From positions 10,978,501 through 11,042,500 of the forward strand of contig OX485808.1 in the NCBI GenBank assembly GCA_950295325.1: a stretch of 64,000 nt of DNA, in the 5' to 3' direction. Shown piece after piece: positions 16,635 to 54,768 of this stretch. A program made the position numbers and the translations under genes. The notes beneath the pieces were generated by a model, which was not told the origin of the DNA, ran no database searches, and saw only the letters and a list, made by a program, of their open reading frames with translations. Each line of letters begins with the position of its first letter. The first letter of the stretch is position 1. The stretch is from Polytrichum commune. Lineage: Eukaryota; Streptophyta; Polytrichopsida; Polytrichales; Polytrichaceae.

Positions 16635-17620
16635 TTCCACTCAGACTAGGACGCTGAAGGGTGGGAGTTTATGGCTGACACGCCCTCAAAAAGTTCAAAC
16701 TCTTTTCCTAGATTTCTTTTGGTCGGGGATGATGCGCACAAGAGTTTAGGCTAAAGTCCATTGGACATCTTGCACACTTCCCATCATTTTGGGAGGGGTT
16801 CGAATTATAATTCCTTTGATGAAAAAAATTGTTCTCCACACCAAGATGCTAGGAAGCGGGATGCTTCCAGGTTATGCGCCCTAGAAGTCCTTCCACCAAT
16901 TTTATGTTTAGTCTCATCAACAACATCAAGTGGGTATTTGGCCCCCTTGCCCACATTTCTCTTTGAGGTCGCCAATTATGTTCATGCTAGCTTGCCATTC
17001 TGGCAAGTAATTTTATCTTCTTGGATTGTTACCTAGAAAGGAATTCACCCCGTGGACCTTAAATCATCGGTCTTAGTCTGGCGCCAACCTTTTGTGGCCA
17101 ATCCTCACCTCACCAATTTTGTGGGCCTTATTGGGACCATGTCGAACCCGCCATTTTTCATAATTGGATGATGTTGGGTCTGCAAAGGATTGACAATATT
17201 TGGGACGTTGCCTCTCATTGTTGGAAACCTCTTTCTTAGCTACCCCTTCCAAAGCATAGTATGCCAATTGGATTGTGTGAGCAATTATGCAAGTCAGAAC
17301 CTTTGGCACTCCACCCCCCCCCCCCCCAGCCACCCGGTTCCCAAGGTAGAGGATTGGAGAAATTGGTCTGTCAATTTAGGTCCACCTTCGGTGACCTGTG
17401 TACAACAACTTACTACCTCACATGCACACTTTCATTGGTTTTATAATTTCTACCATGCACCTCATGGAATTCCTAGACACTATTGACGTTCTTTTGCCGC
17501 AAATTAAGGAGGTTCGACTGATCCAAACCTCAAGCCCAAAGGGATGGTGGTGGCCTACAATCCCATTATCCCGATCAAACAGGGAACTTATCTCTAGTAT
17601 TATTTTCGTGCACCTGTAAA
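16635..17620 (+). pseudogene. LINE region downstream of RT (connection domain remnant)
   Basis: Plus-strand frames show KVQTLFLDFFWSG, AKVHWTSCTLPIILGG and IPLMKKIVLHTKMLGSGMLPGYAP in succession. These match the conserved post-RT stretch of plant LINEs (F-x-W-S-G, W-x-x-[LC]-x-x-P-x-x-x-G-G-L, L-L-x-K-x-x). Several frameshifts and stops are present, and a 14-nt C tract interrupts it at 17314. Confidence 0.7.
17314..17327. repeat. C14 homopolymer
   Basis: Uninterrupted run of 14 C inside the LINE region downstream of RT. Confidence 0.95.
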
Positions 17621-17859
17621 CGCATTACCATTCGAACCTCTCGATTGGCAATGGAAACGGTGTACTAATTTGCCCATTACACATTTTTTCAATTACACAA
17701 TGAGATGGGAATACCATACCACTTTTCTAGAGAATTTACCCCATGTCAAATGCACAAATATCTTAACTATCAAAGGTTTTTCTTTTGACTAGCGGGAGTT
17801 ATTTTATGTGAACATTTGGCATTCATTGATGCTCAAAATGGTATCTTCATTTCTCTAGC

Positions 17860-18120
17860 AATGTTTGGAGAACAACCTCCCAATTGGATGCTGGCGAATA
17901 AAGGTTCAAATGTATGAACCATGTTCGTTGTGCTCGCTCAATGTTGTTGAGACTCAAGAGTATGCATTTTATGACTGCCCGCATGTCCAACGTGCTTGGA
18001 TACTCTTTGGCAATTTACATTTGGCACATGGCCTTCGTGATGTGTATCATTCATGGGACTCGATCTTATTTGGGGCTCTAGATGACATTCTAGCCTTCTC
18101 TAAAATGGAGGACGGCCATT
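17860..18120 (+). pseudogene. LINE zf-RVT zinc-binding fragment
   Basis: The frame starting at 17865 reads NNLPIGCWRIKVQMYEPCSL then CSLNVVETQEYAFYDCPHVQ, giving C-x2-C-x15-C followed by QRAW. This is the zf-RVT domain at the end of plant LINE ORF2 (usual pattern C-x2-C-x3-E-x2-x-H-x-x-x-x-C). It fixes the orientation and the 3' end of the LINE near 18130. Confidence 0.75.
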
Positions 18121-18133
18121 GGGATTTAATCTC

Positions 18134-18148
18134 GGGGGGGGGGGGGGG
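18134..18148. repeat. G15 homopolymer
   Basis: Run of 15 G directly after the LINE zf-RVT frame. Confidence 0.95.
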
Positions 18149-18462
18149 CAGTGTGTTGAAAAGTTAAGGATATAGGTGCGAACAACCACTATTTTATAGG
18201 GGGGTATTACTTTCAATTCTCTTCTTTTTTCACATGCTATCATTATGGAATTTTCTACTTTGGGTTAATAGAAAAATGGCTTGCATTACTTATAATTCCA
18301 AATTACTTATTATTCCATACCCTATAGTACTTTAAAGATGTCCAGTGCCATTTTTGATACCCTATATTACTCTTAAGTCCATTTATAATTTTTTGCCACC
18401 ATGTTTTTAAAATACCCTATCATTTGTGCGCACGTATATTGCTACTCCAACCAATGACTACT

Positions 18463-18479
18463 CCCCCCCCCCCCCCCCC
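18463..18479. repeat. C17 homopolymer
   Basis: Run of 17 C followed by TGAGGATTTAATCTC; a GATTTAATCTC string also precedes the G15 tract at 18134. Confidence 0.95.
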
Positions 18480-19592
18480 TGAGGATTTAATCTCCAATTT
18501 CTAAGTTGCAGTCATAACTCCCTCGGACATACTCCGGTATCTTATTGTGTGGAATATTCGGTGCCTCGAGACTTCTAAGGATTTCAAAAGGGACTCAATT
18601 CATTTAGGGGTGGCTCTATTGAGAGCATAGCAATCCACTTTTCACATAGGCATGATTAACTAGAATGTGCTCCACTGATCCAATATGTGGCCCAAAAGAA
18701 TTTCACACGCCAGGCAACAATTGTGGACATTTGAACTCCTCGCCAATTGTTTGCTTCTTGGCATGGCAAACTACATTAGAGGTTGACGCCCCCACTCCCT
18801 TTATGTTGTGGGATCTTGCCACCTTTTTAATTTCCCCATTACAAGTCCTTGCCCCTCACTTTCACTTAAAGAGATAGTGTCGCCTACACCTCAACATGGC
18901 AACTTGCCATGTTGACAATTTCCTTCACGAAGTTGCCCATTCACTCTTTGCTCCCCCACTCCCTCCCCCACGCGACCTAGCTCTTGCTGCTTACGTCTGG
19001 AGGCACTGAACTTCCATACTTTCTGATCAACCTCCCACATCACCATCCCTTCTTCAGCCAACTTTCCAACTTCCTCTCAACTCTTCCTTGCATTCCCCTT
19101 TTGCTAATCCACCCTTTCACATCCAAACTTTCCTCCCCCCACAACACCTCTCCCCCTCTCCTCATTTCCTTTTTTGCAACAATCCTCATGGTAGAGGCAT
19201 GGACATGGAGGTCACTACTAAAATTTTACTAAACAATATGAGAAAAATATAGGGTACTTTCCATTCAATAGAGAAAAAAATTATACAAATTTTGGAATTA
19301 TTATAGCTTGGATGAAATGACCCATACAATATTATATCTAAAATAAGGCAAGTAAAAAGTATAGGCGGTATTCCATTTTTATTAGTAAAGTAGGGTTTAT
19401 AATATTTGAAGGAACGAAGAATTTATGTGAGGTTTAATAAATATCTTTGGATTGGATGAGGAATTGCCTTACTTGATTAATAGACATTGAATTTAGATGT
19501 TGGCTATGGATGAACCTTAGTTGTATTGAAGGTTGAATTATTTGGCTTCAAGGGAAGTTCTCTTTGACATTATTTGACCGATGAGATTTAAA

Positions 19593-19610
19593 CCCCCCCC
19601 CCCCCCCCCC
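19593..19610. repeat. C18 homopolymer
   Basis: Run of 18 C in A+T-rich flanks. Confidence 0.95.
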
Positions 19611-20199
19611 GACTTTTTATTTATGTCCTCATGAATTATAATAACGTGTAAAATTTGATTCTAATTTGTTATGATAAGGGCAACTTACAAGGGGACTTAG
19701 GGGAAGGCATACAAACTAGGGTTGGAGGGGAAGAGTTGAGATTATTAGAGAGAGTGAGATCAGAAGGTGTGAGAGATTCCAACATCACGGAGGATCACCA
19801 AGCAAATAATAATTGAAAGCATTAACTCAGTCATGATTTGGTCTTATGTGCGGGCTTGAGGTGGTCACTGAGGACTTCAAGATAGTGCTACAACCCAATA
19901 CCATTCAAAGTTATTTGCATGTATCAATAATGTATTGTTATCGTTTTGTTATGAATTAACGTTAAATTATGTCAAGAATCCAAGATTTGGATAAATGGTA
20001 CAATTTACAAACAAAATAGAATCTATAAAATATATTTACTTATAGGATCTTGAAAAGTACCTCAACGTACCATTTTATCTACTAATAGGATGCCAATTAT
20101 TCATGAAAATTACATAAATAGCCCATCTTTAATTAACCCCAACCGCACGTGGTTTTACAAGAATATATACCTTGTGATCTCCCCAGAGAAGCATGTTGT

Positions 20200-21250
20200 C
20201 CACAACTGGCCTTGCTGCCTTTCTTCGAAGCCCCCCAAAACCTTCCCCTTCCTATCCCGCATCTCTCTCGCCTCGGACTCCACCTTCTCCCACTTCCACT
20301 TCCCTTTATTTTCCAAATGCCTTCTTCACCAGTGCCCGGGAAGTTTCGGGCATAGTCGGTCAAGATCCTAGAGATTCTAAATCCAGCCGGTTACATGTTG
20401 ACATGCATCTTCCGGCTCTGCTTCAATTCATGTGAGGTACATTCTATAGATTCCTCTCAAATGATCGGTAATCCTCCTGAAGTCTCCAACTTCAACGTGT
20501 TCATTGTAACTAACCGCCGGTTCTCCCCGAGCAGTGTGAATCTTCACCTCCTACGTACCCCGCGACGTTCCTCATTTCGACCCACTCTTTCCAAAATCAG
20601 GTCGGCCTCATCATGGCCACAACCACAACGTCGACCAGGCTGAAAGGCTACAATTCTCACGCACCCCTCGTATGGCCTTCCCGGGCCTCCAACATCTGAC
20701 GTCTTCCAGCTCGATCCATCCGTTCATGCACACTTAATTAAAAACCCCGCGGAATCGATCGGTTCTGCCCGCCTTGGCTTCGCAGTTTCGAGTTGCATTG
20801 CACCACGAGTATTCGGCTTCCACTCTCCCTCAGGATTGCCTGAGTCAAATCATGAAAAGGATGCCGTCATTGCGATTTGTGGGTTCATGATGCTACCATC
20901 ACACGTACACATGCGACTCACACCACCACGACGACCCCTTTCCTTTGTCAGCTTCCTCGCCAGAACAATTCCCCTCGATCGTCTGCTAGGCTTCTGTCGC
21001 GTTTGTTACATATCGCTGACCTATTTCTGGAGAAAGCTAAGGTCGAGCGCCACGGCATCCTCTCCGCTGCTGATCAGGACTTCATTGCAGGCGCTCATGA
21101 CTTTGAGCTCCGAGGTTCTTCTGCCATGGCCTCATGGGCCTTGTACTGCGGGACCTGGTTCCATGCAGTGATTGTTCTGGAGCTTCTGAAGGCACGCACG
21201 CGCTGCAGTTTCCCACGCTATTACGGGTGACTTTCCATGCAGGCCGCTTG
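20200..21250 (+). other. GC-rich island with gene-like frames, unrecognised
   Basis: G+C is clearly higher than on both sides. Plus-strand frames of 80-117 codons overlap: 20193-20435 (Ser/Pro-rich, resembling an organelle transit peptide), 20395-20643, 20836-21171 and 20877-21230. The last contains SARLLSRLLHIADLFLEKAK and VERHGILSAADQDF, which look like genuine coding sequence in amino-acid composition. I do not recognise the family. The frames do not join into one ORF without frameshifts, so this may be a multi-exon gene, a pseudogene or a captured gene fragment. Confidence 0.35.
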
Positions 21251-21877
21251 CCCACCAGATTCTAGTGTGAATAAGCAGAAACCCGCTCAAATGTAGAGGG
21301 AATCTAGTGGGGTAGGGTTCGAATGTGTCAACTACCTACTCCCGTTTTCTCATATACGGGACCACCTACTAATCTCCTCCTCCTTCAGGTTAAAACATCC
21401 CCCTCCTCCTCCTAAAATCTGACTTTAATTCTTTAGTGACGAGCACTTGTAGATTAAATGTTCTTTAGTGGGCGCATGGAAGTCTTTGTAGCCCGGCGTG
21501 CCTATGGTCCTCCACATTTAAGGGGACTGCCAGAATGTGGTTGGATAGACTGTGGCTTCTCTTTAACTCCACGCGAACACCTCCGACCCACTATTATCTA
21601 GAATCTAGACCCACTATGTCAAGAAGGACAAGCCTATCTAAAATCAACTCATTCTTCAAGTGCACTTTATGAATAAGTTGGTTTTATATTGTGTGAATTT
21701 TGACATGATTAGCCAAATGTAAAGGTATGCAATCCAAAAAGATAATTTGGGCACTCCACGTTAATAAAAATAAAAGTATTACAGTTTGTGTGTGGAGAGG
21801 TTAGGGGTTTGAACTTAACATCAACAAGACATTGTTATGATAAGATTGGATTGTGTGCTCAGTAAACATAGAAACCC

Positions 21878-22595
21878 GGGGGATCGACTCTTCATACCAC
21901 ATACAAACTAGTTAATGTGAGTGTAAGAATGGGTATTATTTGAGGCATTACCATACATAGTATACATAAGGGAGAGGATTATTGTTCTCTAGTGTGTACA
22001 TCTAGAAAGGCTATTTTTACACCTTTTTGAAGTAAAGCAGATGTACAAAAGGGGGCCTAAGGTTTAGAGAACAATTGACAATAGATGTGTTAGTTTCATC
22101 CATTGTTGCCATGGTCATAGTCCTTAATGACTATCATGTATGTTCTTGTTAGGGTTTGCATTTAAGTTCTAGGTTTTTACAAACTAAACGCTCTTGGAGT
22201 GCTCATGGGCTTCTTTGAGTTTTTCTCTCCAAATTGTAACTAACTTATTGTGCTCTCCTCTTTTCGTTTTCTTTTTCTTTTCTGATACAATTGTTGAGTT
22301 ACATGGTCTGGATGAAAATTTGTTTAATGACTTTCTCATTGGAAAGTGATCATGGATTTCATATGTGATAAAGGCGTATTTAATTCATGATTATTTTATG
22401 AATGTAGTGGAGGCATCTATCACATTAAATTGAAAAGCTTAGTGTTATATACATGAGTCCATTTTCTAGTATCTCATTAGTACATTTACATTTGTTTTTC
22501 TCTATAAGCTTCTCATATATAGGGCATTTAATTCCATAGTGACCCACGCACATCATTTAAGTTTCCAATGAAGAGTCCAACCCCCCCCCCCCCCC
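21878..22595. mobile_element. MITE family F, copy 1 (C/G tract at the terminus)
   Basis: The left end is GGGGGATCGACTCTTCA and the right end is TGAAGAGTCCAA followed by 15 C, so the termini are inverted repeats whose outer part is oligo-G/oligo-C. The interior aligns in reverse orientation with 52038-52748 and 54194-54768. Shared blocks: AGTGCTCATGGGCTTCTTTG, TTTTTCTCTATAAGCTTCTC and GTGACCCACGCACATCATTT. No coding capacity; superfamily unknown. Confidence 0.7.
22581..22595. repeat. C15 homopolymer at a MITE end
   Basis: Run of 15 C forming the outer right end of MITE F copy 1. Confidence 0.95.
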
Positions 22596-22784
22596 AAGCA
22601 TAGAAACCGTTTCAAGTTCAATAATTAACACAATTGAGAGAGTCAATATGATCAATATAAATAAAAAATTAACTCTTAATTTAACCTCTTGTAACTTTTG
22701 CATTTGAACTCCGATTCTAAAGTTGAAATGACAATCTTCTTGATTTGCAATTACTTAGCTCATAACACAATTGCTCAAATACTA

Positions 22785-23093
22785 ATTGCAAACCACATTA
22801 CAATGTCACCAACACTATTTGTCATTCCTCGTAAATTTTTTGGAAGGATTATAGATTTACAGTGTTGCAATTACTGTGACTTACCAAGTGATTTTTCATC
22901 CAAATTTCAATCATCCATGACCAAATTTCATCACAAATGGTTGGCAAGAGAAGGTAGGTTTTTGGCCGATGGCTGAACTCATCCATCATCCATCACAGTA
23001 TTTGTTCACTGATTCATAAGAAGTGTCAACTAAAAAGTCACCATAGTGGCATTAAATACCACATGACACTAAATATCATATTTAATGTCCTAA
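22785..23093. mobile_element. MITE family E, copy 3 (truncated, inverted relative to copy 1)
   Basis: Matches 28736-29121 in reverse complement: GTGTTGCAATTACTGTGACTTACCAAG at 22860-22890, the ATGACCAAATTTCATCACAA block and the end CACTAAATATCATATTTAAT at 23066-23085. Only one terminus is present. Its sequence TTTTTTGGAAGGATTATAG is the counterpart of the C12/A9 tract in copy 1. Confidence 0.7.
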
Positions 23094-23169
23094 GGGACTG
23101 CCAAACATCACTTCGTAGCTGCCCAACCTTCCTTGCAAAGTAGCTGCCCAACCTCATTTATTAGTTACA

Positions 23170-23275
23170 TGCCTGCCACCGAACCTCACCAAGTAGCCCA
23201 CCGAACCTCACTGACAACTCATTACCCGTTGCCGAACCTCGCCACTGGCTACCGAACCTCATTACGAGCTACCAA
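23170..23275. repeat. Degenerate tandem repeat with CCGAACCTC core
   Basis: CCGAACCTC occurs at 23179, 23201, 23232 and 23252, each preceded by a CTGCCA/TGGCTA-like segment, giving a unit of about 20-31 bp. It falls within an 87-codon frame (23133-23396), but the repeat explains the openness of that frame. Confidence 0.65.
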
Positions 23276-23399
23276 ACCACAGATGACATCGAATTTCCGA
23301 CTCGTGTCCAGGGCCAACGCTGTTGAAGGTTTGGACTCCAACCCAGTTTCTGTCATCTGTGCCTGTCATGAAAATACCTCATATCTAACTTGCTAGTGT

Positions 23400-24771: not shown

Positions 24772-26344
24772 CTAGTAAGCCTGACGCACAGTGCACGCCA
24801 CAGCTTGTGCCCAATGCCTGAGCCTCGTCTTCACTTGCATGGAATTGTCACCTACACAATAGACATCATAATCTGTAAGCAAACTGTCATGGGAGGCCGA
24901 TCCAGAAAACTAATATTCCCATGCCACCCCCTCGTAGGTCGTATTTCTAATACACCTTGAACACTGTAGACAGAACAGAAGCAAAAGCAAGATACTACAC
25001 AAATTGGCACAATGCACATACATTTCAATTGCACAAGATAAACCACTTGCAATTTTTCTGCTTCGGAGGGGTGCACTAACAATAATCAGAGCAGATCCCA
25101 ATTGATGCTTTCTAATATCACTGGTGCATTGACCTTCACGTATTGGTAGAAAGAGAAATCTAAGCTTGGGTTTAGGAGTGAAAATTTCCGCATTCACATT
25201 GCGTTATTGGAAAAGACAGAACACGCACAGCATTATTCGTAACGGAGAGAGAGGTTCTGTATGCGTCTGTATACTCTCTATTGCACTTCTGAGTTTAGTG
25301 AACGACAAAGATATCAAGAAGGCAAGGATAGTTCGTGATGACGCAAGAGATTGAGTGGTTAGACTTACCAGGACTCGCAATCCTCCATGACTCCATCGGG
25401 GAGCTCTGGAAGCTTCTCCCACTACCAGATCGTTCCAGAGAATCACCACCATCCAGAATAGAAACAGGTGAGGATCTCCCAGGCACGTCATGATACTGCT
25501 TAGCTATGGCATAACAAAGCTCAAGAGCAGGTAAGGTGCTACACAGTTTAGGATCCTCATTGCTAAACCCAAACCCGAGGTCAATGCATCCTCGCAGTTC
25601 ATCCATATCCTCATCCGTCAAGCTCCTGGCTCGCTGCCTCCTCGTCGTAGGTGGCCTAGGCCAAGCCCGGTCTCCACAATCAGACACACTTCGTCCCACA
25701 ATTCTCGCTTTCTTATCTTCTTGCATCTCGTGCATCTCTTCCAACAATATGCGGTTGCTTCGCCGCTCCCACGCCTCCTCTCTCGCTTCATCCCTGGATT
25801 CCACACTGGACACCGACCGCTGCTTGTGCTTTCTTAGCGACCTTAACCCCTCCAGATCGAGGGCATCCTTTTGTGAAATATCTACAGCGGGTGAGAGACC
25901 GTATCCGTATCCCTCTCCATCGTAGCCCCATGCCATCTCCGGTTTCCAGTTGATCGGAGCGGATGAGACACGTGACACACCTGGACCAAGGGTGTCGACC
26001 TTCATCGTGGCATCGGGAGTAGTAACTCTTCGAGTGGTAACAGGGCTAGCCATTCGACTCCTGGCATAGGCGCCTCCATTCGTCTGGCGCTGCTGACGCG
26101 GACCCCCTCCTCCCAGGGCAGTAGTGTACCACTTCGGAAGCTGGAAAACGCGGGAAGATTCCTCGTCTTCGTGCTCTTGCTCATGCTCTTCTCCCTCTCC
26201 GAGGGAACATATTTCCGAAAGCTCCACCCATTCCTCTTGCGAAGGGATGTCGCTCATCGACGTGCTACGGCGTCGAGGAGCAAAGCTCTCGCGAATCATC
26301 TCCAGTCCCCGCCTCATCGGCGAATTCGTTCTGGTATCCCTCAT
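24772..26344 (-). CDS. DUF1685 family protein, two exons, 351 aa
   Basis: A plant-specific protein of unknown molecular function. Exon 1 is 26344-25369 and exon 2 is 24851-24772, with a 517-bp intron bounded by GTAAGT and TGTGTAG; the junction splits a Gly codon. The N-terminal two thirds (residues 1-235) are low-complexity, Arg/Ser/Glu-rich and probably disordered. The DUF1685 core begins with SLTDEDMDELRGCIDLGFGF at about residues 240-260, then LCSTLPALELCYAIAKQYHD, SWRIASPG at the splice site, and the C-terminal signature RLRHWAQAVACTVRQAY encoded by exon 2. Without splicing the frame would run to a stop in the intron and lose that signature, which supports the intron. No lesion seen. The start at 26344 gives the longest frame; later Met codons at residues 10 and 16 are possible. 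No transmembrane segment. Probably nuclear or cytosolic, but location is inference. Confidence 0.88.
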
Positions 26345-26595
26345 ATTCTGATGATCTTTTCACACACTGATGATGATGATGATCTGCCTCTTCTTCAACC
26401 TCCCCTTCACCACTCTTCGGGGCTCACTCCGACGGAACACACAACCTCGCCATTGATACATTCGTCGCCGAGCGCGCAGCATATACAGACTGAACTCCAC
26501 AACAAATCCAAACCGCAATCGCAATCGCAATAATCCCCGTTCCACCGTTGTCCGCAATCACCACCGATCCCTGTTATCGACCGATCGCTCACAAG
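26345..26595 (-). promoter_or_regulatory. Presumed 5' leader of the DUF1685 gene
   Basis: Between the start codon and the GC-rich block. It holds a short (GAT)n run at 26368-26382, copied as (ATC)n on the coding strand, and a (CAATCG)n-like stretch at 26512-26532. No TATA box could be assigned with confidence. Confidence 0.35.
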
Positions 26596-28735: not shown

Positions 28736-29121
28736 CTACACTAAATATGATATGTAGTGTCATATGGTATTTTATGTCACTGTGGTAACTTTTCATATGA
28801 CACTTCTTGTGACTAAATGAACAAATATTCTCATGGATGATGGATGAGTTCATCCATTGGCCAAAACCCCACCTTGTCTTGTCAGCAACTTGTGATGAAA
28901 TATTGTCATGGATGATTGAAATTTGGATGAAAAAACACTTGGTAAGTGACAGTAATTGCAACATTGTAAACCTACAACCCCCCCCCCCCAAAAAAAAATC
29001 ACAAGGAATGACCAATAATGTTGGGTTAACATTTAGTGTTGGTGACACTGTGCTACGGTTTACAATTAGTATTGAGCAAGCTAATTCAAATTGGTGACAC
29101 TAAATATCATATTTAGTGTAG
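28736..29121. mobile_element. MITE family E, copy 1
   Basis: 386 bp bounded by CTACACTAAATATGATAT on the left and its near inverse ATATCATATTTAGTGTAG on the right. The interior matches 57010-57368 (same orientation) and 22785-23093 (reverse). It is non-coding. An internal C12/A9 tract at 28978-28998 is not present in the other copies. A possible TA target duplication was not resolved. Confidence 0.8.
28978..28989. repeat. C12 homopolymer inside MITE E
   Basis: Run of 12 C followed by nine A. Sister copies have a mixed CCTTCCAAAAAA-type sequence at the same place. Confidence 0.95.
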
Positions 29122-29135: not shown

Positions 29136-29152
29136 CCCCCCCCCCCCCCCCC
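29136..29152. repeat. C17 homopolymer
   Basis: Run of 17 C beginning 15 bp outside the right end of MITE E copy 1. Confidence 0.95.
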
Positions 29153-29840: not shown

Positions 29841-32224
29841 TAGAAGAAAACTTGTCCATTACAACCACCCGTTGTGACCTGGCCACTGCAACTCATGGCG
29901 AGAAAATGCACAAATAAATCATTTCACTTGTCAATCGGAGGTTTTCGATTACGGTTTTGGCTATGATTCCTGGACATCAAATAACAGAAACCCTCATATA
30001 CACAACCAAAACGATTCATTTATGCATTCTCTCAATACAAGTTGGGGTGGCCAAGCCGCAATCACCGTGAAGTTGGTTGGGCTCACTAATGTAACTTCGA
30101 AGCATTGTTTGCACACCCGACCGACTCTTACTACTACGAGCGTTTCTAGAGCATTTTTGGCTCCGTGTGTGTGTAGGGGGGGGGGGGGGGGGGGAATGGC
30201 CGGTGCTTTGCCTTTGGATAAAGAGATTTCATGGGGGACGTGGGGGGGCACCACCTTTGGATTTGGATGCCCAAAGATGCCTTTGAGGAGCCTTCCACCC
30301 CACTTCCATGTGTCAAATGATGCGTGGGTTCAAATTTTCATGTGTTCCCAATGGCGGCGCGCGTAGTAGGAGCACCATTATAGGGATTAGCAAATTTGGC
30401 TTGACTTGGGTGGGCGGGCGGACGCGTTCACATTGGCGAGAGCCATGTTGATCATGGAGTTTTGCCAAAGCTAGCTACCGTACCATTCGCATCTTATCGG
30501 GCACGTCTCCACCTACTAAGTTCCTTGTTTCACATCATCTCTTTAACGGGTCCCAACCAATCACACAAAGACACGTGGCGCTTTTTGAGAGCACGGGATT
30601 AATCTATGCCCTAATGTGATCCGCATGGTACTCGTCCAGATTCATAGATGTCGAGTACTTGTTTGAAGTTTTAGGTTATACCCGCCTCCTTTCGTGTAAC
30701 TTACCCCCGGTTGAATTTAGGCCGTGAAATAAGCTCTTGCGTGACTATTGTAATGTTGTGTGTGCATTTTTTCCATGGGAGCAACGAGCCTTGGGACGAG
30801 TGTCTATGTATAGGATCCCCCCTTTTCAACGAACACAATCATCTCATGTCGTGTTTGTAAATTTTATAACGTAGACGTGCCTATATTTGCTTCTCTCTCT
30901 TAGTTGGACACCTGTATTTGAGTGGTATGTGGTTAGGTGTAACTCCAAAAATGAATTCCAAAAAGACATGTGTTCAAAAGAGATTGTCAGACTACACGCT
31001 CAAAATGCGCTAACCGTTTTAGGTTTAATAGTCGACGAAATTTGAAGGAATCTATACAACCATTTAATGAGAATCTTCACTTTGATAATGGATAAGATAT
31101 TCATACGAGCTTCAAAAATTGTGAGGGAAGTGGCTACGCCCTCGATTTGGATATGCGGACTATCTTGTACTAGCTTAAATCGCGTGTTTCATATCCTAGG
31201 AAGAGTGAGCTAAGTTGGAAAAAAATAACCATTTAAGACCCACCCTACCTTTTAAAAGGGTTGAGGTGCAAGATACAAGGAACTGGAGGTTTTTGTTTCT
31301 AGATATTTCTCATCAGGCTCCGGCCCCGAGAGCATAACACACTAAAACCTAGATTGTATGCATCCGACACCTAGCACAGATAATTACTAATTCAATGACA
31401 CGCTGTCTTTTAACTTCAAATGCAAGGGCCAAGGACAAGAGCACATGCTTTGGGCATGTTTATACTAAGTGAAAAGGCATTAGATCATGGCACCCCACTT
31501 TTGGGACAAGAGCATAAAGAAGTCCATGGACTATAAGTTAGCCCAAAGTGTTTTGGAAGTCATAAGCTCTCAGTGTAAACCCAAATTGGAATCATAAAAA
31601 GAATCTTACAATATTTTAATGAAATATGAGAATGTATCATGGAGGAGAGAGAGAAAAAAATGAGTGTTCGTAGCTTTGTTTATGTACTGATGTTTGTATA
31701 TGTTAATTCAACAAGTTTTGAGCATTCAAGCTTTATTTATAGAGTACAAATTAGAAAAATGGTGTTGTTTATTACATAGTAGAAAAACTGTTGTATAGTA
31801 GTTACACATAAAGAAACCTTCTACAATAGATCCAACAATCACCAATTTGAATTAAACTTGAATAGTATATATAATATGTATTTATAGTAAGGTGTAATGG
31901 GTTGTACCTTGGGGCCCACCACACATTCCATTGGCCCTACCTTCAAGAGTTCTCTTGGAAAACTCCCTACCATCCCTGCCAACATTGCCCATACCTACCA
32001 TGTGGGATTCTATGTAGATTTTTATCCAATGCTCTCATGTTATGGGATGTTAGTCCAAAATTGTAGGGGTCCGTGACACTCTCAACCAATGAGAAGTCCA
32101 TATTTTTCATGAGCCATGGCTTAATGGTTTTTGTGTGAACATGCCCTTAACATCAAACTCATGTGTCCGCGATCAAAATTACTTTACAAATAAAGTCAAC
32201 GTGGATAGCTATCCATGAACACAT
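29841..32224. other. Unannotated sequence with one G19 tract
   Basis: The stretch 29990-30860 is richer in G+C and has overlapping open frames on both strands (114 codons at 30022-30366 plus; 86 codons at 29994-30254 minus), but no motif I know. It may be a gene fragment or retroelement piece. The rest to 32224 is A+T-rich with nothing recognised. Confidence 0.4.
30176..30194. repeat. G19 homopolymer
   Basis: The longest homopolymer in the window; preceded by a short GT run. Confidence 0.95.
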
Positions 32225-33223: not shown

Positions 33224-33598
33224 CCAGAGCCCAACATTGGGCGCCCATGCCCATGCCCATACCCATACCCACCCATGCCCATGGGTTTTGGGTGGGCATG
33301 GGTGCAATATTATTGTTCATGGGCGGGCATGGGTGGGCATGGCTGAGCTATTATTGTTCATGGGTGGGCATGGGTGGGGCACAATTACACAATACACATT
33401 ACATAATTTTTGAATACATGGGCGCAATTTGAATAGCATGGGTGGGCATGGGTGGGCACATGTCATGCTATGTGTGGGCATGGGTGGGCATGGGTGCGCA
33501 CATGTTATGCTATGGGTGGGCATGGGTGGGCATAGGTCGCTGCTGATGGGCATGGTCTGGGTATGGGTGCAATTAGAAAGGAAAATGTTGGGCTCTGG
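33224..33598. mobile_element. 375-bp MITE with perfect 15-bp TIRs and an internal minisatellite
   Basis: Terminal inverted repeats CCAGAGCCCAACATT (33224-33238) and its exact inverse (33584-33598) are flanked by TAAGCA on both sides (33218-33223 and 33599-33604). The interior is dominated by repeats of GGGTGGGCAT, inverted at the left (CCCATGCCCA) and direct for the rest, so the single strand could fold back on itself. No transposase. The 6-bp duplication does not fit hAT (8 bp) or Harbinger (3 bp), so the class is open. Confidence 0.85.
33239..33560. repeat. GGGTGGGCAT-type minisatellite
   Basis: Many tandem or near-tandem copies of GGGTGGGCAT, with a group in inverse orientation at 33239-33283 and interruptions at 33385-33430. 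ORFs on both strands here are products of the repeat. Confidence 0.9.
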
Positions 33599-34882: not shown

Positions 34883-34893
34883 GGGGGGGGGGG
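34883..34893. repeat. G11 homopolymer
   Basis: Eleven G, one A, then five G. Confidence 0.95.
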
Positions 34894-35195: not shown

Positions 35196-35211
35196 CCCCC
35201 CCCCCCCCCCC
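35196..35211. repeat. C16 homopolymer
   Basis: Run of 16 C, 302 bp from the G11 tract and in the inverse sense. Confidence 0.95.
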
Positions 35212-35405: not shown

Positions 35406-36120
35406 GGGCCGCTTTACACCTACCTAGAGGCCGGGGCAATTCGTTGTGTAAAAGGCTTGAGATCCTCACTTGTGATTGGTCAGAAGGCTGAAATCAACCC
35501 CAACCCCTTTACACTTAGAGGCCGGGCCAATTCGTTGTGTAAGAGGCTTGAAATCCTCACTTGTCATTGGTCAAAAGGTTGAAATCAGCCCCAACCCCTT
35601 TACACCTAAGGCCGGGCCAATTCGTTGTGTAAGAGGCTTGAAATCCTCACTTGTCATTGGTCAAAAGGCTAAAATCAATCCCAATTCCTTTACACCTAGA
35701 GGCCGGGCTGATTTGGTGGTATGATTTTTTTAATCAAATAATTGCATGGTATGACACGGCCTGAGCTCATTGAATTGGGTGCACCCAAAATGGAAGGCCA
35801 ATTCTTGGCCTCGGGACCAATGTCAAATTTCATTCATTTTTTTAAAATAAAATATGATTTTTTAGCAAACCATATCCATTGGATTATGTGGAAATATGAA
35901 CGACTCTATGCTAAATTATGCTAGATCCGTTAGATTATGCTAGATATATTGAATTGGCCTAGCTTCTTGACCCTAAGGCCTTTACATATGAAAAAATCGG
36001 CCCCCATTATAATATTATTATAATGTGTAGTTGAGGCCGACCTCCAACCCAAAAGGGGCTGAAATTTCATGCAATCCGCCTCAAGGGGAATTGGCCCGGC
36101 CTCTAGGCGTAAAGCGGCCC
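35406..36120. mobile_element. MITE family B (Harbinger/Tourist-like, TAA target duplication)
   Basis: 715 bp with inverted ends GGGCCGCTTTACACCTACCT and, from the right, GGGCCGCTTTACGCCTAGAG, flanked by TAA on both sides (35403-35405, 36121-36123). The ends resemble family A (GGGCCACTTCACAC), so both probably used related transposases. Inside are three ~90-bp tandem units (about 35425-35710) that themselves repeat the subterminal GGCCGGGCCAATTCGTTGTG motif. Confidence 0.85.
35425..35710. repeat. Three ~90-bp tandem units inside MITE B
   Basis: The marker ATCCTCACTTGT falls at 35462, 35553 and 35643, giving periods of 91 and 90 bp. Each unit also carries CCCCTTTACAC and GGCCGGGC blocks with few differences. 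Confidence 0.85.
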
Positions 36121-41280: not shown

Positions 41281-41295
41281 GGGGGGGGGGGGGGG
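41281..41295. repeat. G15 homopolymer
   Basis: Run of 15 G after GATAAAATTT. Confidence 0.95.
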
Positions 41296-44670: not shown

Positions 44671-44683
44671 GGGGGGGGGGGGG
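44671..44683. repeat. G13 homopolymer
   Basis: Run of 13 G after AAAGGGGTGTT. Confidence 0.95.
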
Positions 44684-47719: not shown

Positions 47720-47732
47720 AAAAAAAAAAAAA
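47720..47732. repeat. A13 homopolymer
   Basis: One of the few A/T runs of similar length to the C/G tracts. Confidence 0.95.
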
Positions 47733-47762
47733 TTAGATGAACTTGGTGCTCTGATTTCAAAG

Positions 47763-48140: not shown

Positions 48141-48413
48141 ATATTTGTATTTGTTTGGAGTTAGAAGTTATTTTCACACCATCTATATTGCTTAAACTCG
48201 TTGTATATATTTTAAAACTCATATTGCTTATGTTTTTGTATTCCCTCAATAATACGACAACTATATGCCATTTGTCATGTTAATGAGAAGACGACACCTC
48301 AATAATACGACTTTTTTTGTGCTTCCCAAATGTGTCATACTAAATGAGGGAGAACAGTAGTAAGCTTAAGATTTGGCCAAGAGGGCGTTCCTGCTTTTGA
48401 GGGACTCCATTTA

Positions 48414-48914
48414 GGGCCACTTCACACACAAGACTGAGAGCCCGTGACCATTACACTTCAAGCACTCTCATTGGTGGAAAAGGCGGAGCCGGTCCGAGTT
48501 CGCTACTTCACACTATGCTTGAGGGACCAACGGAGTATGTGAATGCAAGATGGATGTAAAGTCTACATGGATTCCTACGTGGCATCAAATGGGTCATGTT
48601 TCATGGTCACTAGCAATATTTTCAAAATCCACCTCTTGGAGGTAGGCCTAACACAAAACCAGGAGATCATGGCACTCTGAACACTCACAACTGCTGGTTT
48701 ATTTTGTTTAATCATGTGTGAGGACTTGCATGAATAGAAGTTTGTTGAAACATCATTTGGTTGAGGGCCCAGTCACATATGGCTCACACTACACTTGAGG
48801 GTCTGTGACCACACTACATGATTTTGGAGGTGTCTTGGGACGGCCTTTGGATGCTTTCTTTTGGGCTCTCACCATTTCATGGTCATGGCCCTTGGCTCGT
48901 GTGTGAAGTGGCCC
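48414..48914. mobile_element. MITE family A, copy 4
   Basis: 501 bp with ends GGGCCACTTCACACACAAGA and, from the right, GGGCCACTTCACACACGAGC, flanked by TTA (48411-48413 and 48915-48917). The best-preserved full-length member. Confidence 0.88.
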
Positions 48915-49014
48915 TTATTCAAAGCAAGATGTGGATATCTTTGATAACTTGCCTCTTAGGTTGGTTTCTTTTTAAATAATACATTAATTAACTTAACCCT
49001 TCCTTTCCCCACAA

Positions 49015-49138
49015 GAGAGGGAATTATTGTATAGGAGCGCACCTCTCATTCATCCAACATAAAAGCCTTTAAATAGTATGAAACCCTTATGTACTTCGAT
49101 GGATGAGAAGTACGCTCGTATACGATAATTCCCTCTTT
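49015..49138. mobile_element. MITE family D, copy 3 (short)
   Basis: About 124 bp that is almost entirely inverted repeat: GAGAGGGAATTATTGTATAG on the left, GGGAATTATCGTATACGAGC from the right. It is an internally deleted form of the element at 41011. Confidence 0.82.
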
Positions 49139-49360
49139 CCCTTTCTCCTGGGCTTCCCCTTCGGAGTTAGGGTCAAGGTCAGGAGTTGTTGTTGTGGTTG
49201 TAATTTTGTAATTTTATATTAGAATTCAAGTAATTAATAAATACATGTTGCTCATTATACAAATAAATAAATAAAATTGATAAATGAAAATTGAAGTTGC
49301 AAACAACTATCTTGTCATTGATTAATTTCTTATTGCATGTATTTCAAGATAAGTGTTCAT

Positions 49361-49383
49361 TGTTGTTGTTGTTGTTGTTGTTG
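49361..49383. repeat. (TTG)n microsatellite
   Basis: About seven units. Confidence 0.95.
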
Positions 49384-49502
49384 GGGTGGAAGACTATGGG
49401 AAACTTGTTAACAAACTTGAATTTCATCTTGCTTACTACAGTCATGACCTAAGGATACAAAAAACTAAAGCTTGAGGGTACCCATCTATATGGTCACAAC
49501 GA

Positions 49503-49515
49503 CCCCCCCCCCCCC
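49503..49515. repeat. C13 homopolymer
   Basis: Run of 13 C. Confidence 0.95.
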
Positions 49516-49984
49516 AATATGTTGAGTGTTGAGTCTAGAATGGTTAGCAAAATTTCAATCACATTATTCGATCTTTATAGAACATGTGGCTTTTTTGGCA
49601 TCCTTTCTTAGTTCCACACCGCTCAAGTATATGTGATAGTTTAAATTCGATAACCAAATTAGGTTCGATTGCCTTAATAAGAGAGCAACCTTCTTCAAGC
49701 TTGATGACTTTCTTGGTTTGCACTAACTTAATACATAGTCACAAGCTTACACTTGACTCTTGTAGTTAAGGACATCTTTCCTTTTTTAACTTTTTTTTTA
49801 CTTTCCTTTCATTTTCTTTCTTTTTGTTGGCACATATCAAAAATTCAATTGTAGAAAGAACCCAAAATACAACCAACCCGGCCGAATCATCGCAACCCGA
49901 GTAGAAATCAAGAAATAATGCTCATTTGTGGCCTATCCTTTCATGTAACGACTAAGTTGCTCCAAATCACAATAAGGCCTTTGA

Positions 49985-49997
49985 CCCCCCCCCCCCA
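49985..49997. repeat. C13 homopolymer
   Basis: Run of 13 C. Confidence 0.95.
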
Positions 49998-50484
49998 GTC
50001 AAATCAAATTTGTTAAGAATGTAACATCTTTCTTTTGTCATGATGTGGCTTTTTTATGATTTATTTTTGGCTTTTCCCTTGCGCTAAATCTCTTTGACAT
50101 GGGAGAGGAGTACGACTATCTACCGCTAATAAAACGAGTTCTGTAAGGGGACCCAATAAACAAGACACGTTTGGAGGGACATAGAAAACACAAAAGGCAT
50201 CCCATGGAATCGAGACCAAAAGATAATCACTTAAGCTTTGTTTGGGCCTTTGGTTCAAAGAACGAGGAGAACCGAAGGTCGCATTTTTTTTTGACTAATT
50301 AGTGTGGGTTACCATTTGGAGTTACGCATTGCATTATCAATTAGTGTGCATAAGTAGTTAGTATGCACACCAAAGAATATGATACAACTTAGTTGGGAAA
50401 AAATGATAATGTTGGTGGTAAGAAGTTATAGCAACATGTAAATCCGAATGGTAACCCACTCTAATTAGACAAAAGAGTGGTTAC

Positions 50485-50695
50485 AAATGAACCGGTTGAG
50501 TTTGAGAAATAGCCGGTTGAAGTTTGAGACTTCAGGAGAATTACCTGTTGCTTAAAAGGACTATGTAAAATATACCTCAAATTAGTAAAAAAAATTGAAA
50601 GATCACAACATGTAACAAGTTGGACTTGGAAACACTAGGATTTTGATTAATTATGCCCAAAAATATCCCCGGGCAATGCTCCACTTAACAATGCT
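50485..50695. repeat. Repeat family H, copy 2
   Basis: Aligns with 2795-2985 in the same orientation; see that entry for shared blocks. Confidence 0.55.
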
Positions 50696-50699
50696 TCCC

Positions 50700-52030
50700 T
50701 ACCAAAGAGACCAATGCTTGTCAATCTTGTCAAGGAATGTCTCAAGGACTAAGTCAATTAAAGTGCGGCTTTCATTTGCACACAAAATTGCGTACCAAAA
50801 TCTAAAAGTGTCATGTTACCTCCAATGTTATAAGCATACCGAGCTTGCAATTCCCTATAAAAATGGTTGGGTGTGATGTCATGTAAATTTCTTATGAACA
50901 TTTAAGACACTTTGAATCAAATTTGGGATACCTACTCCAAGACTTATGCCGTGTTTCGATTGCATATAGTATCTTATTAGCAAAAAAGCTTGCCTATAAT
51001 AGTATTCTTTGGGGAGTGATCTTTGCATATAGGAACCTCCTTTCCTCCAAACAAGTTTAAGTTTCCGTTGCTTTTGACAAGTGAGAACCAACGATCAGTT
51101 GCATTTAGGGTTTCAATGCTTTTGTGATAAGTAAGGATGGTTTCTTATGAGGTTTTTGATTCCAATTCTAATCACAAATAGTTACACATGGCTAAGTTGC
51201 CACTACTTTTTAAGAATTTGTAGTTTCCTTTTTTGTATTCCCATCAACCTTTCCAGAAGTTATCATTTGCGTTTAAACTAGCAAAAACAAAATCCCAAAA
51301 AGTTGCCAAACAAAAAAACGCAGAAAAACACACACACACACACCAAAAAAAAAAAGGTGCCTTTATGGGTCAACTAATTGAAAATTTGTCCATCCGTCAA
51401 TGACCAATTCTAGATCTCATAAGTATTTATTATAATTCAATGAAAATGTGTGATTGACAATGTTTCATATTTTAAATCTTTGGCACAAAGGCTAGACATG
51501 ATATTTGACTTCCATGCATCTTTAAGCCAATTGAGAGCTTGAGAGCTGTAAACTCAAAGAGTTAAGCGTTGTTAGTGGTGGGGATCATCTTACACGTGAT
51601 TCGCCTTATTTCACACCACATAAAAGCTTCTCAATTGAGAGGCGGTTGCTGTTGTTGTTGTTGTTGTTGTTGGATGATTGAATGATTGAATGAGATTTTG
51701 ATGCTCCCATGCAACATGTTTAATGATGCAATTTTGACAATTTCACCCGAGGTGGTTGTGTTTTGGTTCCTTTCTTGCAATTGAAATCTTCAATTTGTGT
51801 CAAAAAAGAAAAGAAAAGAAAAAGAAACCTCATAGCTAGCATAACATGATCAGGATTACGAACAAGAACTTGTCACAAACATGTGAAGAGAATGTATAAA
51901 TCCCAAGCTTGAGAAATACTAAAATTTCCATTCTAAGATTCTTAATTTACACTACATATCTTAAGTTTTGTTTGATGGATAAACATCTCGATCCTTTGAA
52001 CTACAATATCATTGAGAGTTTATCAATGCT
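50700..52030. other. Unannotated A+T-rich sequence
   Basis: Contains an A-rich run near 51340 and a (GTT)n run at 51650-51672. No gene recognised. Confidence 0.45.
51650..51672. repeat. (GTT)n microsatellite
   Basis: About seven units. Confidence 0.95.
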
Positions 52031-52037
52031 CAATCTT

Positions 52038-52052
52038 GGGGGGGGGGGGGGG
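52038..52052. repeat. G15 homopolymer at a MITE end
   Basis: Outer left end of MITE F copy 2. Confidence 0.95.
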
Positions 52053-52748
52053 AGGGTGAGGGTGGACTCTTCACTAGAAACCTAAATGACTTGCGTGGGT
52101 CACTATGAAATTAAACCCCCTAAATGAGAGAAGTTTATAAAGAAAAACAAAATGCATACATACTAATGGCATGCTAGAAAATGGGCTCATTTGTTTATAC
52201 TAAGGTTTCCAATTGAATGTTATAAAAGCCTCCAATACATATACAAAATATAAATATGTCTTAATCACATAAAAAAACCCAGTTTCATTTTCCAATGAGA
52301 AAATTGTTGAACATTTTTTTATTTGTAGTATGAAACTAAACATTGCATCAAACAAACAAAGGCAAGAGCACAATTTGGAGAGAAAAGCTTAGGGGAGCCC
52401 ATGAGCACTCCCTAAGCACTCCAAGAGCCTCCAATTTGTAAAAACCTAGAACCCCAATCCAAACCTTAATAATAATGGACATAATAGTCATTGGAGACGC
52501 TTACCATATGACAACAATGGATGAAAACATGAATTGGATGAAACCGACACATTTGTTGTCAATTTTTCCTGTAAATGCTAAGATCCCCTTTTGTGCATCT
52601 ACCTTTACTTCAAAATTCTTAATAGCCTTTTCTAAATGTTATGACTAGAGTAAAATAAGACCTCTCCCTTATGTACAATATGTATGCCAATGCCTCGAAT
52701 AATACCCCATTCTTATACTCATGCTAGTTTGCATGTAGAGTCCACATT
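52038..52748. mobile_element. MITE family F, copy 2
   Basis: Starts with a G15 tract (52038-52052), then GAGGGTGGACTCTTCA, and ends near TAGAGTCCAC at 52736. The interior aligns with 54194-54768 directly and with 21878-22595 in reverse. Blocks: AACCTAAATGAC, GAGAAGTTTATAAAGA and AGGGGAGCCCATGAGCACTC. Confidence 0.75.
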
Positions 52749-52759
52749 TATCATGCCAA

Positions 52760-53475
52760 GGCTTCAAGATGCCAATGAAGAACCATAAAATAAACATGTT
52801 GCCTAGTAAGGGGCACAAATTGTGTGATGAAGTTGAATGTCACTACCGTAGGCCATCCACATGAGTTTCATGTTATTGTAAACGTGACCCTTGTGTAATT
52901 TGCTTTGACCACGGCAAAAAAAAGTGCATTCCAATTTGACCTAGGACTTTTCCTCTACAATGTAGGTTGATAGCAGGTTGAGCGGAATATAATTCAAAAT
53001 AATAAAACCTGTTTTTTTGGAACTTATTGGGCTAGATGGTCTAAATGAAAGAAAATCCAATCCTCAAAATGCCTAAATTTAGAAAAAATTGACAACTCAA
53101 CAAAACTCAACAACTCACAATTGACAACATAGTCTAACACATGTTAGGTACTGAACCTCTCAAATTCAAGTCAATAAAAAACTTAAGAGCACGCGAAGTC
53201 TACTAGAGAAATGTGTGTGTAACCAAATCTAAGGTGAAGTGTTGATGTGTGCATACCGTAGGATATGTTATGTGCATAGATGAATAAATATACATATACA
53301 TATTTTCCTAAATTTTTATAAATGTTTTTATGGATTATCTAAGCCTTTTTATAAATAAATAAAATTATTGGGCAAAATTTGCCAAACTTACTATCAACCT
53401 ACAGTACTTGCAAAAATGATTGATACGGTTCACAATTACCAAGCTATCAAATCTATTGTGACTCACGTGTCAAAA
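52760..53475. other. Unannotated A+T-rich sequence
   Basis: No gene or clear element. Confidence 0.4.
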
Positions 53476-53479
53476 TTAT

Positions 53480-53760
53480 TCACCTCATAATTTGCATCTA
53501 ATTTTCCAAATTTTTATCCACGAGACTAAATTGTAGTCCATTTCGACTCTTAGGCGTTGTTAACCCTTAAAGCTACCAAGTTTTGGAGACATTTCTACAA
53601 ATCCCCCACGATTCTTGAATTTGTTCTAAGTGGTCTATGACACTCATTGTAATTACATCTATCATACCATATTAGAGCAACATGTAAAGCAAACCATATG
53701 AAACCATGGAATTAGTGCCAATTCTTGAGTTTGTGATAATTGAGACAAAGCCACCCAAAG
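53480..53760. repeat. Dispersed repeat, copy 1 of 2
   Basis: Shares GTTGTTAA, TACCAAGTTTTG, ATTTCTACAAATCCC and GTCTATGA blocks with 54776-54960 in the same order. The two copies flank MITE F copy 3, suggesting that one repeat type is a common neighbour or target. Confidence 0.55.
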
Positions 53761-54193
53761 ACTATGATTTTTTGATGCTTAAATTATCATACATAAAGAA
53801 TGGTGTTAGACTCTGGAAGTTTGACTTTCTAGCGTGCTCTACTAGGATGGGTGGGCCAAGATAGCCTTGCATGGGCTGATCCGGGATTCATGACAATGAG
53901 CCCAATGCACATACCCAATTTTAGATTTTATAATTCTCTTAAAGTTTGAGAGGTGAAAAGAAGAAGTCCCAAAAGTTTCGCTGAACTTTCAAAACATGCT
54001 TTGATACATGACAAGCTAATGAGCTCTTAATAGAAAGCTTTCTCAAAGAAGAATCAAACCCATGGTTTCGTCCCTCTTTGAGAGATTTTACAGATAACTC
54101 CATAACATATTTTATTATATCCAAAAATATTAATAACGACCATGTATATATAAAGTGACTCGCATGTCAAGATTCTTCACCTAATAATTTTCA

Positions 54194-54768
54194 GGGGATG
54201 GACTCTTCATTGAAAACCTAAATGACATGTGGGTCACCGTAAGATTAAACCCCCTATATACGAGAAGTTTATAAAGAGAAACAAATGTATAAGTACTAAT
54301 GGCAAGGTAGAAAATGGATTTATGTAATTCTACCGAGCTTTTCAATCTAATGTGATAAATGCCTCGATTACATATACGACACATTAGTCATGAATTAATT
54401 ATTCCTTTATTACATGTAAATGCATGTTCATTTTCTAATGAGAAAGTCATGAACCATTTTTTCATTCATAGCATGTAACTTAATGAATGCATCAAACAAA
54501 CAAAGACAAGAGCACAATAACTTAGCCATAACGTGGAGAGCAAAACTCAAGGGAGCCCATGAGCACTCCAAGAACCTCTAGCTTGTCCTAGAACCTAAAT
54601 GCAAAGGCTAACAATAATGGACAAAGGGAGTCATTGAGAACTTTTACCATATAACAACAATGAATAAATGCGAATTGGATGAAACTAACACATTTAATGC
54701 CAAATTTTCTCTAAATATTAGAGTCCCCTTTTGTATGTCTATATGAAGAGTCCACAACCCCCCCCCCC
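54194..54768. mobile_element. MITE family F, copy 3
   Basis: Left end GGGGATGGACTCTTCA and right end TGAAGAGTCCACAA followed by C11. It is shorter than copy 2 through internal deletions. Only one end has a long homopolymer. Confidence 0.75.
54758..54768. repeat. C11 homopolymer at a MITE end
   Basis: Outer right end of MITE F copy 3. Confidence 0.95.

What the first reader, a model, noticed from the sequence alone, without database searches (positions are those of the whole stretch)
17314..54768. Sixteen long poly(C)/poly(G) tracts in an A+T-rich plant window
Uninterrupted C or G runs of 11-19 nt occur at 17314, 18134, 18463, 19593, 22581, 28978, 29136, 30176, 34883, 35196, 41281, 44671, 49503, 49985, 52038 and 54758. 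A/T runs of equal length are rarer (for example near 2281 and 47720) although the base composition would favour them. Poly(G) is usually the unstable, under-represented homopolymer in eukaryotes because it can form G4 structures. Such density suggests either lineage-specific C-slippage or tolerance of G-runs (FANCJ/DOG-1-type helicase biology is the known parallel), or elements that carry the tracts.
Basis: partly seen in the sequence, partly recalled or inferred. Interest (0 to 1): 0.7.

Follow-up and report, generated by a model that had tools for sequence, protein, structure and literature searches.

The report
Moss-like genome rich in G/C tracts
The long runs of C or G are real, occur throughout this plant genome (probably a moss) at least as densely as in the roundworm known for them, and look like short C runs, some of them at the ends of mobile elements, that grow long by copying slippage.

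Summary
All 16 tracts are present at the stated coordinates, 11-19 long; no other C/G run in the window exceeds 7. The trait is genome-wide: in the 407.8-Mb assembly, C/G runs of 11 or more number 26,876 (65.9/Mb) against 12,608 A/T runs (30.9/Mb), although composition predicts about 18 and 821. Runs of 18 or more number 2,186 (5.4/Mb), against 396 in 100 Mb of C. elegans (PMC2211496). The window is 3.8-fold richer than the genome mean. The organism is a green plant, probably a moss (inferred). Some tracts are carried by transposons: a young MITE of about 340 bp with 8-bp target duplications has a tract at both ends (two window tracts; at least about 6% genome-wide), and a second repeat usually ends in C4-6 but in 8 of 40 copies read in C11 or more, with none at 8-10. 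MITE-internal G5 and C6 runs are nearly invariant while its terminal tracts range from 5 to 18. This supports threshold-dependent slippage seeded partly by transposon ends. Exons resembling FANCJ and mismatch-repair genes are present, so loss is not indicated. It is a plant counterpart of the Caenorhabditis G-tract condition, not a new kind of system.

The parts
17314..17327 (+). poly(C) 14
   Evidence: no relative among fetched sequences
18123..18130 (+). 8-bp target-site duplication GATTTAAT, left of the MITE
18131..18483 (-). MITE-A copy, 353 bp with its tracts: CTC-G15 ... C17-TGAG; non-autonomous DNA transposon, 96.5% identical to the query copy over 313 bp
   Evidence: 1,643 candidates genome-wide (40 scored)
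18134..18148 (+). poly(G) 15, terminal tract of the MITE
18463..18479 (+). poly(C) 17, terminal tract of the MITE
18484..18491 (+). 8-bp target-site duplication GATTTAAT, right of the MITE
19593..19610 (+). poly(C) 18
   Evidence: no relative among fetched sequences
22446..22580 (+). end of a family-B repeat copy; 2,198 candidates genome-wide (40 scored), homology of the other listed copies stops in or just after the C run
22581..22595 (+). poly(C) 15 at the family-B end; most other copies read have C4-6 here
28978..28989 (+). poly(C) 12 followed by A9; diverged relatives have CCTTCC, CCC or CC at this place
29136..29152 (+). poly(C) 17; repeat homology only on the left, in three of the rows shown ending 13-14 bases before the tract, in others further away
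30176..30194 (+). poly(G) 19 after GTGTGTGTA
   Evidence: no relative among fetched sequences
34883..34893 (+). poly(G) 11 followed by A and G5 (interrupted tract)
   Evidence: no relative among fetched sequences
35196..35211 (+). poly(C) 16; not MITE-A although 313 bp from the preceding G run
41281..41295 (+). poly(G) 15; repeat homology begins about 37 bases or more to one side
44671..44683 (+). poly(G) 13
   Evidence: no relative among fetched sequences
49503..49515 (+). poly(C) 13; repeat homology only on the right (L047, L040)
49985..49996 (+). poly(C) 12
52038..52052 (+). poly(G) 15 at the end of a second family-B copy (read on the minus strand: CCTCACCCT-C15)
52053..52300 (-). second family-B copy, aligned part (far end not determined)
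54758..54768 (+). poly(C) 11; family-B-like homology stops 22-23 bases before it

Best explanation
The tracts are the visible part of a genome-wide condition in which G/C homopolymers longer than about 8 bp tend to grow. Short G/C runs of up to about 6 are stable. Once a run passes about 8, replication slippage carries it to 11-18, where contraction and point interruptions hold it. Seeds come from ordinary sequence and also from transposons whose ends contain a G/C run: MITE-A (CTC-Gn...Cn-GAG with 8-bp target duplications) and family B (usually ending in C4-6). Shown: the genome-wide excess, the length differences between copies of one repeat, the near-invariance of short internal G/C runs in MITE-A, the two length classes at the end of family B in the copies read, and transposon carriage of a minority. 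Inferred: that slippage is the agent, that the threshold lies near 8, and that repair or helicase function tolerates the tracts.
For: Genome-wide: 26,876 C/G runs of 11 or more against about 18 expected; 64% of runs of 8 or more reach 11 (26,876 of 41,935), where composition predicts under 1%. MITE-A: in the 38 copies analysed, differing from their consensus by 0-2.9% (one by 5.6%), the 76 terminal tracts are 5-18 long (mean 12.0, SD 3.6) and uncorrelated between the two ends (r = -0.15), while internal G5 is kept in 35 of 38 and C6 in 37 of 38. Copies sharing one insertion site (L002 against L021-L023) have G16/C16 against G11-12/C11, so length changed after insertion. Family B: 40 copies read, 31 with terminal C1-6, one with C7, none with 8-10, eight with 11 or more. 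Family C (L015): 20 of 22 copies read keep an uninterrupted C10-18 at one internal place; point interruptions are seen in some.
Against: Intermediate lengths are not absent: 15,059 genome-wide runs are 8-10 (minus), 8 of 15 sampled C/G runs of 8 or more are 8-10, and 14 of 76 MITE ends are 8-10, so the gap in the window and in family B may be small numbers or local. Family-B copies come from the 40 best-scoring of 2,198 against a query with C15, which favours long tracts. Most MITE-A copies were the best-scoring ones, which favours low divergence. A runs inside MITE-A are not fixed either: the A7 run is 7 in 32 of 38 and 10 in 4, and a second A run is 5 in 21, 6 in 16 and 7 in 1, so variation is not peculiar to G/C, though none of these A runs is as long as the terminal tracts. 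No pedigree, population or read data show slippage directly, and assembled tract lengths may be off by a base or two.
Confidence: 0.7

Rival explanations
1. The tracts are mainly spread by transposons that carry them, and little new growth occurs in place.
For: MITE-A has a tract at both ends; pattern G11-HAGT occurs 2,086 times against 405 for the reversed control. Two of 16 window tracts are MITE-A ends and two are family-B ends. Of 28 tracts of 11 or more that I read on C1 93-849 kb, 14 belong to MITE-A copies, but five of those loci were chosen because they showed the paired spacing.
Against: The excess of 1,681 is only 6% of 26,876 (a lower bound, since it needs intact neighbouring bases). 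Five of the 13 window tracts tested had no relative among the fetched sequences, although that set is under 0.1% of the genome. In family B most copies read carry only C4-6, so there the long tract arises per copy.
Confidence: 0.17
2. The genome tolerates G tracts because of unusual FANCJ/DOG-1-type helicase or mismatch-repair function, and this sets the abundance (compatible with slippage as the source).
For: The Caenorhabditis parallel: about 400 tracts of 18 or more, maintained by DOG-1 (PMC2211496). A FANCJ-like exon is present at C1:31.03 Mb with FANCJ as best solved-structure hit.
Against: DEAD_2 matches lie at four places that resemble XPD, FANCJ, RTEL1 and DDX11 (labels largely recalled), and MutS_V matches at nine places include MSH2-, MSH3- and MSH6-like ones (labels recalled), which is what I would expect of any plant (recalled). 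Nothing unusual was seen, but gene integrity and activity were not tested.
Confidence: 0.3
3. Assembly or sequencing artefact.
For: Homopolymers are hard for long reads (recalled), and raw reads were not available.
Against: Tracts occur at fixed places in repeat copies, beside exact target-site duplications in 35 of 38 MITE copies, with unique flanks, and with C/G exceeding A/T; an error of a base or two cannot turn C4-6 into C11-19.
Confidence: 0.04

Closest known systems
Poly-G/poly-C tracts of Caenorhabditis elegans and C. briggsae (Zhao et al. 2007, PMC2211496)
   Same: G/C homopolymers hugely over-represented in an A+T-rich genome; that paper reports (citing Denver et al.) that A/T tracts decline with length while G/C tracts do not.
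   Different: Plant; density at 18 or more is 5.4/Mb here against 396 per 100 Mb; transposon ends contribute here; no helicase mutant tested.
Mononucleotide SSR patterns of plants (PMC4668000)
   Same: In monocots and Selaginella C/G runs overtake A/T runs at high repeat number, and Chlamydomonas is C/G-dominated.
   Different: In the one moss studied there, Physcomitrella patens, mononucleotide SSRs are 97.3% A/T and A/T exceeds C/G at every length, the opposite of this genome.
MITEs with 8-bp target-site duplications (hAT-type, or possibly MULE-type; superfamily recalled, not tested)
   Same: About 340 bp with tracts, imperfect terminal inverted repeats, 8-bp duplication, high candidate copy number (1,643), too short to encode a transposase.
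   Different: Terminal repeats contain a length-variable G/C homopolymer three bases from the element end; superfamily and partner element not established.

Membership tests
Caenorhabditis-type G/C-tract genome | G/C runs of 18 or more at several per Mb, far above expectation | tested here: met
   2,186 in 407.8 Mb = 5.4/Mb; expected 0.0003
Caenorhabditis-type G/C-tract genome | G/C runs do not decline with length as A/T runs do | tested here: met
   140-kb sample: C/G runs of 8 or more 15, of which 7 are 11 or more; A/T 35, of which 2. Genome-wide C/G: 64% of runs of 8 or more reach 11; A/T was counted genome-wide at 11 or more only
Caenorhabditis-type G/C-tract genome | maintenance depends on a FANCJ/DOG-1 helicase | not testable with these tools
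   A FANCJ-like exon is present; dependence needs a mutant
MITE / non-autonomous DNA transposon (MITE-A) | target-site duplication of fixed length | tested here: met
   a shared 8-mer within 22 bases of both tracts in 37 of 38 copies, exact in 35; four of the 38 share one insertion and two more (L070, L079) share an 8-mer
MITE / non-autonomous DNA transposon (MITE-A) | terminal inverted repeats | tested here: met
   CTC-Gn-YAGT ... ACTR-Cn-GAG plus subterminal GTGCGAACAA on both strands, imperfect
MITE / non-autonomous DNA transposon (MITE-A) | mobilising autonomous element (hAT or other) | not tested
Moss (organism) | closest protein relatives are moss proteins | tested here: inconclusive
   the two best single-domain LHCII hits are 8htu_U and 7xqp_a, which I recall as Physcomitrium structures; the listing shows no organism

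The most novel reading that the evidence does not exclude
One moss lineage has independently evolved a Caenorhabditis-like mutational regime in which G/C homopolymers behave as a two-state system (stable up to about 6, expanded at 11 or more), with transposon ends continually supplying seeds; some change in replication or repair since the split from Physcomitrella lets thousands of G4-prone tracts persist.
Probability: 0.33. Interest if true: 0.65.

Novelty: new variant of a known kind. Interest (0 to 1): 0.5.

Why it matters
Genomes with abundant long poly(G) seem uncommon, and Caenorhabditis has been a main place to study how they are kept (recalled, and PMC2211496). A plant with an even higher density of such tracts, some at known transposon ends with 8-bp duplications, offers many copies of one defined tract: a natural mutation-accumulation experiment on G-run slippage, and a way to ask what the FANCJ-type helicases of plants do. 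For users of the assembly it also warns that tract lengths need PCR-free accurate reads.

Tried and rejected
The G11 ... C16 pair at 34883/35196 (spacing 313) looked like a second MITE copy but its flanks do not match. The idea that tracts in general sit at repeat ends was tested by aligning the flanks of 26 runs of 8 or more to the fetched sequences. It holds for family B, but other tracts have no relatives, spanning relatives, or homology that stops well away from the tract, so it was not generalised. Loss of FANCJ or mismatch-repair genes was considered and not supported. The RTEL1-, XPD- and DDX11-like and the MSH labels rest on recalled motifs; for the RTEL1-like exon the best solved-structure hit is FANCJ, so that label is uncertain. 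Of ten stop-to-stop open frames of 130 residues or more in the window, six were scanned; one (25295-26359, minus) carries DUF1685 and five had no Pfam match. Paper searches for the species named no assembly that I could match; passages of PMC12454661 did not help. Paper searches for the trait in plants or mosses and for G-ended MITEs showed no report of a moss with such tracts or of a G-ended MITE among the titles and abstract starts listed; that covers open PubMed Central papers only.

Data set aside: L003, L004 and L005 duplicate L021-L023 and were dropped before counting. L006 is split by a nested element and is not among the 38 MITE copies. The 38 are 32 of the 40 scored (8 not fetched) plus six met in other fetched stretches or the window; where a MITE tract was interrupted (L066, L071, L076 on the G side) only the run nearest the interior was measured. 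Family-B rows are 38 of the 39 other copies scored (one, on C3 near 28.77 Mb, was not fetched) plus two in the window. Family-C rows are 20 fetched of 40 scored of 424 candidates, of which one is L015 itself, plus L015 and L037.
Full report
Observation. The lengths are 11-19, ten of C and six of G. The window holds no C/G run between 7 and 11, against three A runs and no T run of 11 or more. From base composition one expects 0.002 such C/G runs in 64 kb, and from a first-order model 0.013.

Genome-wide scale. The window lies in a 407.8-Mb assembly of 64 contigs, at C6:10978501-11042500. Seven contigs (77.9, 70.3, 59.2, 59.1, 52.9, 44.7 and 42.1 Mb) add up to 406.1 Mb. Counting runs on both strands gives: C/G of 8 or more 41,935, of 11 or more 26,876, of 18 or more 2,186; A/T of 11 or more 12,608. 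At GC 0.412 (from a 140-kb sample at round coordinates on C1-C6) composition predicts about 2,088, 18, 0.0003 and 821. So C/G runs of 11 or more exceed A/T runs twofold in an A+T-rich genome, and 64% of C/G runs that reach 8 also reach 11. In the sample, C/G runs of 8 or more number 15, of which 7 are 11 or more; A/T runs 35, of which 2. The window is 3.8 times the genome mean; this enrichment is noted but not explained.

Organism. Chlorophyll a/b-binding domains give 58 matches, so it is a green plant. The single-domain LHCII chains closest to one of these are 8htu_U and 7xqp_a, which I recall as Physcomitrium patens structures; a fused LHCI chain (9vfj_2) scored higher in total because two stretches match. 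With seven large contigs I lean to a moss, perhaps of the Polytrichales (seven chromosomes, recalled), but the species is not established.

Transposon ends that carry tracts. In the list, five G runs are followed by C runs 321-323 bp downstream. These are two ends of one element, MITE-A. Its anatomy is: 8-bp target duplication, CTC, Gn, YAGT, about 300 bp with subterminal GTGCGAACAA in both orientations, ACTR, Cn, GAG, duplication. A shared 8-mer flanks 37 of 38 copies, exactly in 35; four of the 38 descend from one insertion and L070 and L079 share an 8-mer. The window copy spans 18131-18483 with GATTTAAT on both sides. The genome search found 1,643 candidates (a rough count), of which 40 were scored, all 97-100% identical to the query. 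The pattern G11-HAGT occurs 2,086 times against 405 for its reversed control, an excess of 1,681 or about 6% of all tracts; this needs intact neighbouring bases and is a lower bound. A second family (B, 2,198 candidates) usually ends in GAAGAGTCCAC-CCCC; the window copies at 22581 and 52038 are its ends. A third (C, L015, 424 candidates) has an internal C tract, uninterrupted at 10-18 in 20 of 22 copies read.

How the tracts behave. In the 38 MITE-A copies, median divergence from the consensus is 0.6% (range 0-2.9%, one 5.6%); most were picked by score, which favours low divergence. Yet the 76 terminal tracts run from 5 to 18 (mean 12.0, SD 3.6; 11 at 7 or less, 14 at 8-10, 51 at 11 or more). 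The two ends of one element are uncorrelated (r = -0.15). Inside the same element a G5 run is unchanged in 35 of 38 and a C6 run is kept in 37 of 38. The internal A runs are not fixed: the A7 run is 7 in 32 of 38 and 10 in 4, another is 5 in 21, 6 in 16 and 7 in 1, which may reflect subfamilies as well as slippage. Four copies at one shared insertion site have G16/C16 in one and G11-12/C11 in three, so change continues after insertion. In family B, 40 copies read have a terminal C run of 1-6 in 31, 7 in one, 8-10 in none and 11 or more in eight, two of these being the window copies (some long runs may be under-measured by one or two bases because of where the script began counting). The family-B set comes from the best-scoring copies against a query with C15, which favours long tracts. 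In family C the interruptions seen are a T (four copies) or AA (one) in or near the end of the run. For the tract at 28978, diverged relatives have CCTTCC, CCC or CC at the same place.

Interpretation. These facts fit slippage with a length threshold near 8: runs up to about 6 are quiet, longer runs grow to 11-18 and are then held by contraction and point interruptions. Transposon ends act as one source of seeds, but most tracts have not been tied to a transposon. Slippage itself, the threshold and its cause are inferred. Against a sharp two-state picture stand the 15,059 genome-wide runs of 8-10, 8 of 15 in the sample and 14 of 76 MITE ends.

Helicases and repair. DEAD_2 matches fall at four places. 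The exon at C1:31.03 Mb has FANCJ as its best solved-structure hit, well ahead of CHL1 and XPD; the exon at C5:1.06 Mb also hits FANCJ best but looks RTEL1-like to me (recalled motif). The other two resemble XPD and DDX11 (recalled). MutS_V matches fall at nine places, among them MSH2-, MSH3- and MSH6-like exons (labels recalled). Nothing points to loss of these genes; integrity and activity are untested.

Comparison with what is known. C. elegans has 396 G/C tracts of 18 or more in 100 Mb, C. briggsae 216, human 200 in 3.3 Gb, yeast 1 in 12 Mb (PMC2211496; parts 1 and 2 of 5 read). The present genome has 5.4/Mb. The same paper reports, citing Denver et al., that A/T tracts decline with length while G/C tracts do not. 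Among 12 plants and algae, P. patens has 97.3% A/T mononucleotide repeats and A/T exceeds C/G at every length, whereas in monocots and Selaginella C/G overtakes A/T at high repeat number and Chlamydomonas is C/G-dominated (PMC4668000, passages). Mayer et al. found poly-A over poly-C in 12 genomes except a diatom and a green alga, with Daphnia pulex highest in poly-C (PMC3152781, passages). Passages of PMC3887541 gave no C/G figures for moss. So the trait is a known kind; its presence at this strength in what seems to be a moss, opposite to P. patens, and the transposon-end seeds, are the new parts as far as the searches made here show (listings of open PubMed Central papers only).

Verdict. 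Observation confirmed; interpretation partly supported; new variant of a known kind.

Noticed in passing
G000 C5:1751760-1846160: A tandem array of 14 LHCII-type chlorophyll-binding gene matches with the same top score, within 95 kb.
   Followed up: no
G000 C2:29388478-30911038 and C4:5552659-5568151: Clusters of partial chlorophyll-binding matches that look ELIP-like (recalled), possibly the ELIP expansion seen in desiccation-tolerant plants.
   Followed up: no
L006:501-1061: A MITE-A copy split by a 561-bp insert that begins CACGGGTAGGTCACT and ends AGTGACCTACCCGTGA: a nested element with its own inverted ends.
   Followed up: partly
window 33243-33537: Minisatellite of GGGTGGGCAT-like units, period about 41-42.
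   Followed up: no
window 35422-35708: Three copies of a 90-91-bp tandem unit, 91-93% alike, just after the tract at 35196.
   Followed up: no
window 25295-26359 minus: 354-residue open frame with a DUF1685 domain.
   Followed up: no
G000 C1:543-849 kb (L002-L005): Four copies of one MITE-A insertion with shared flanks, so the surrounding unit is itself duplicated near this contig end.
   Followed up: partly
L061 (G000 C6:1220742): A strong MutS domain in a single long open frame that does not look like the usual plant MSH proteins (recalled judgement).
   Followed up: no
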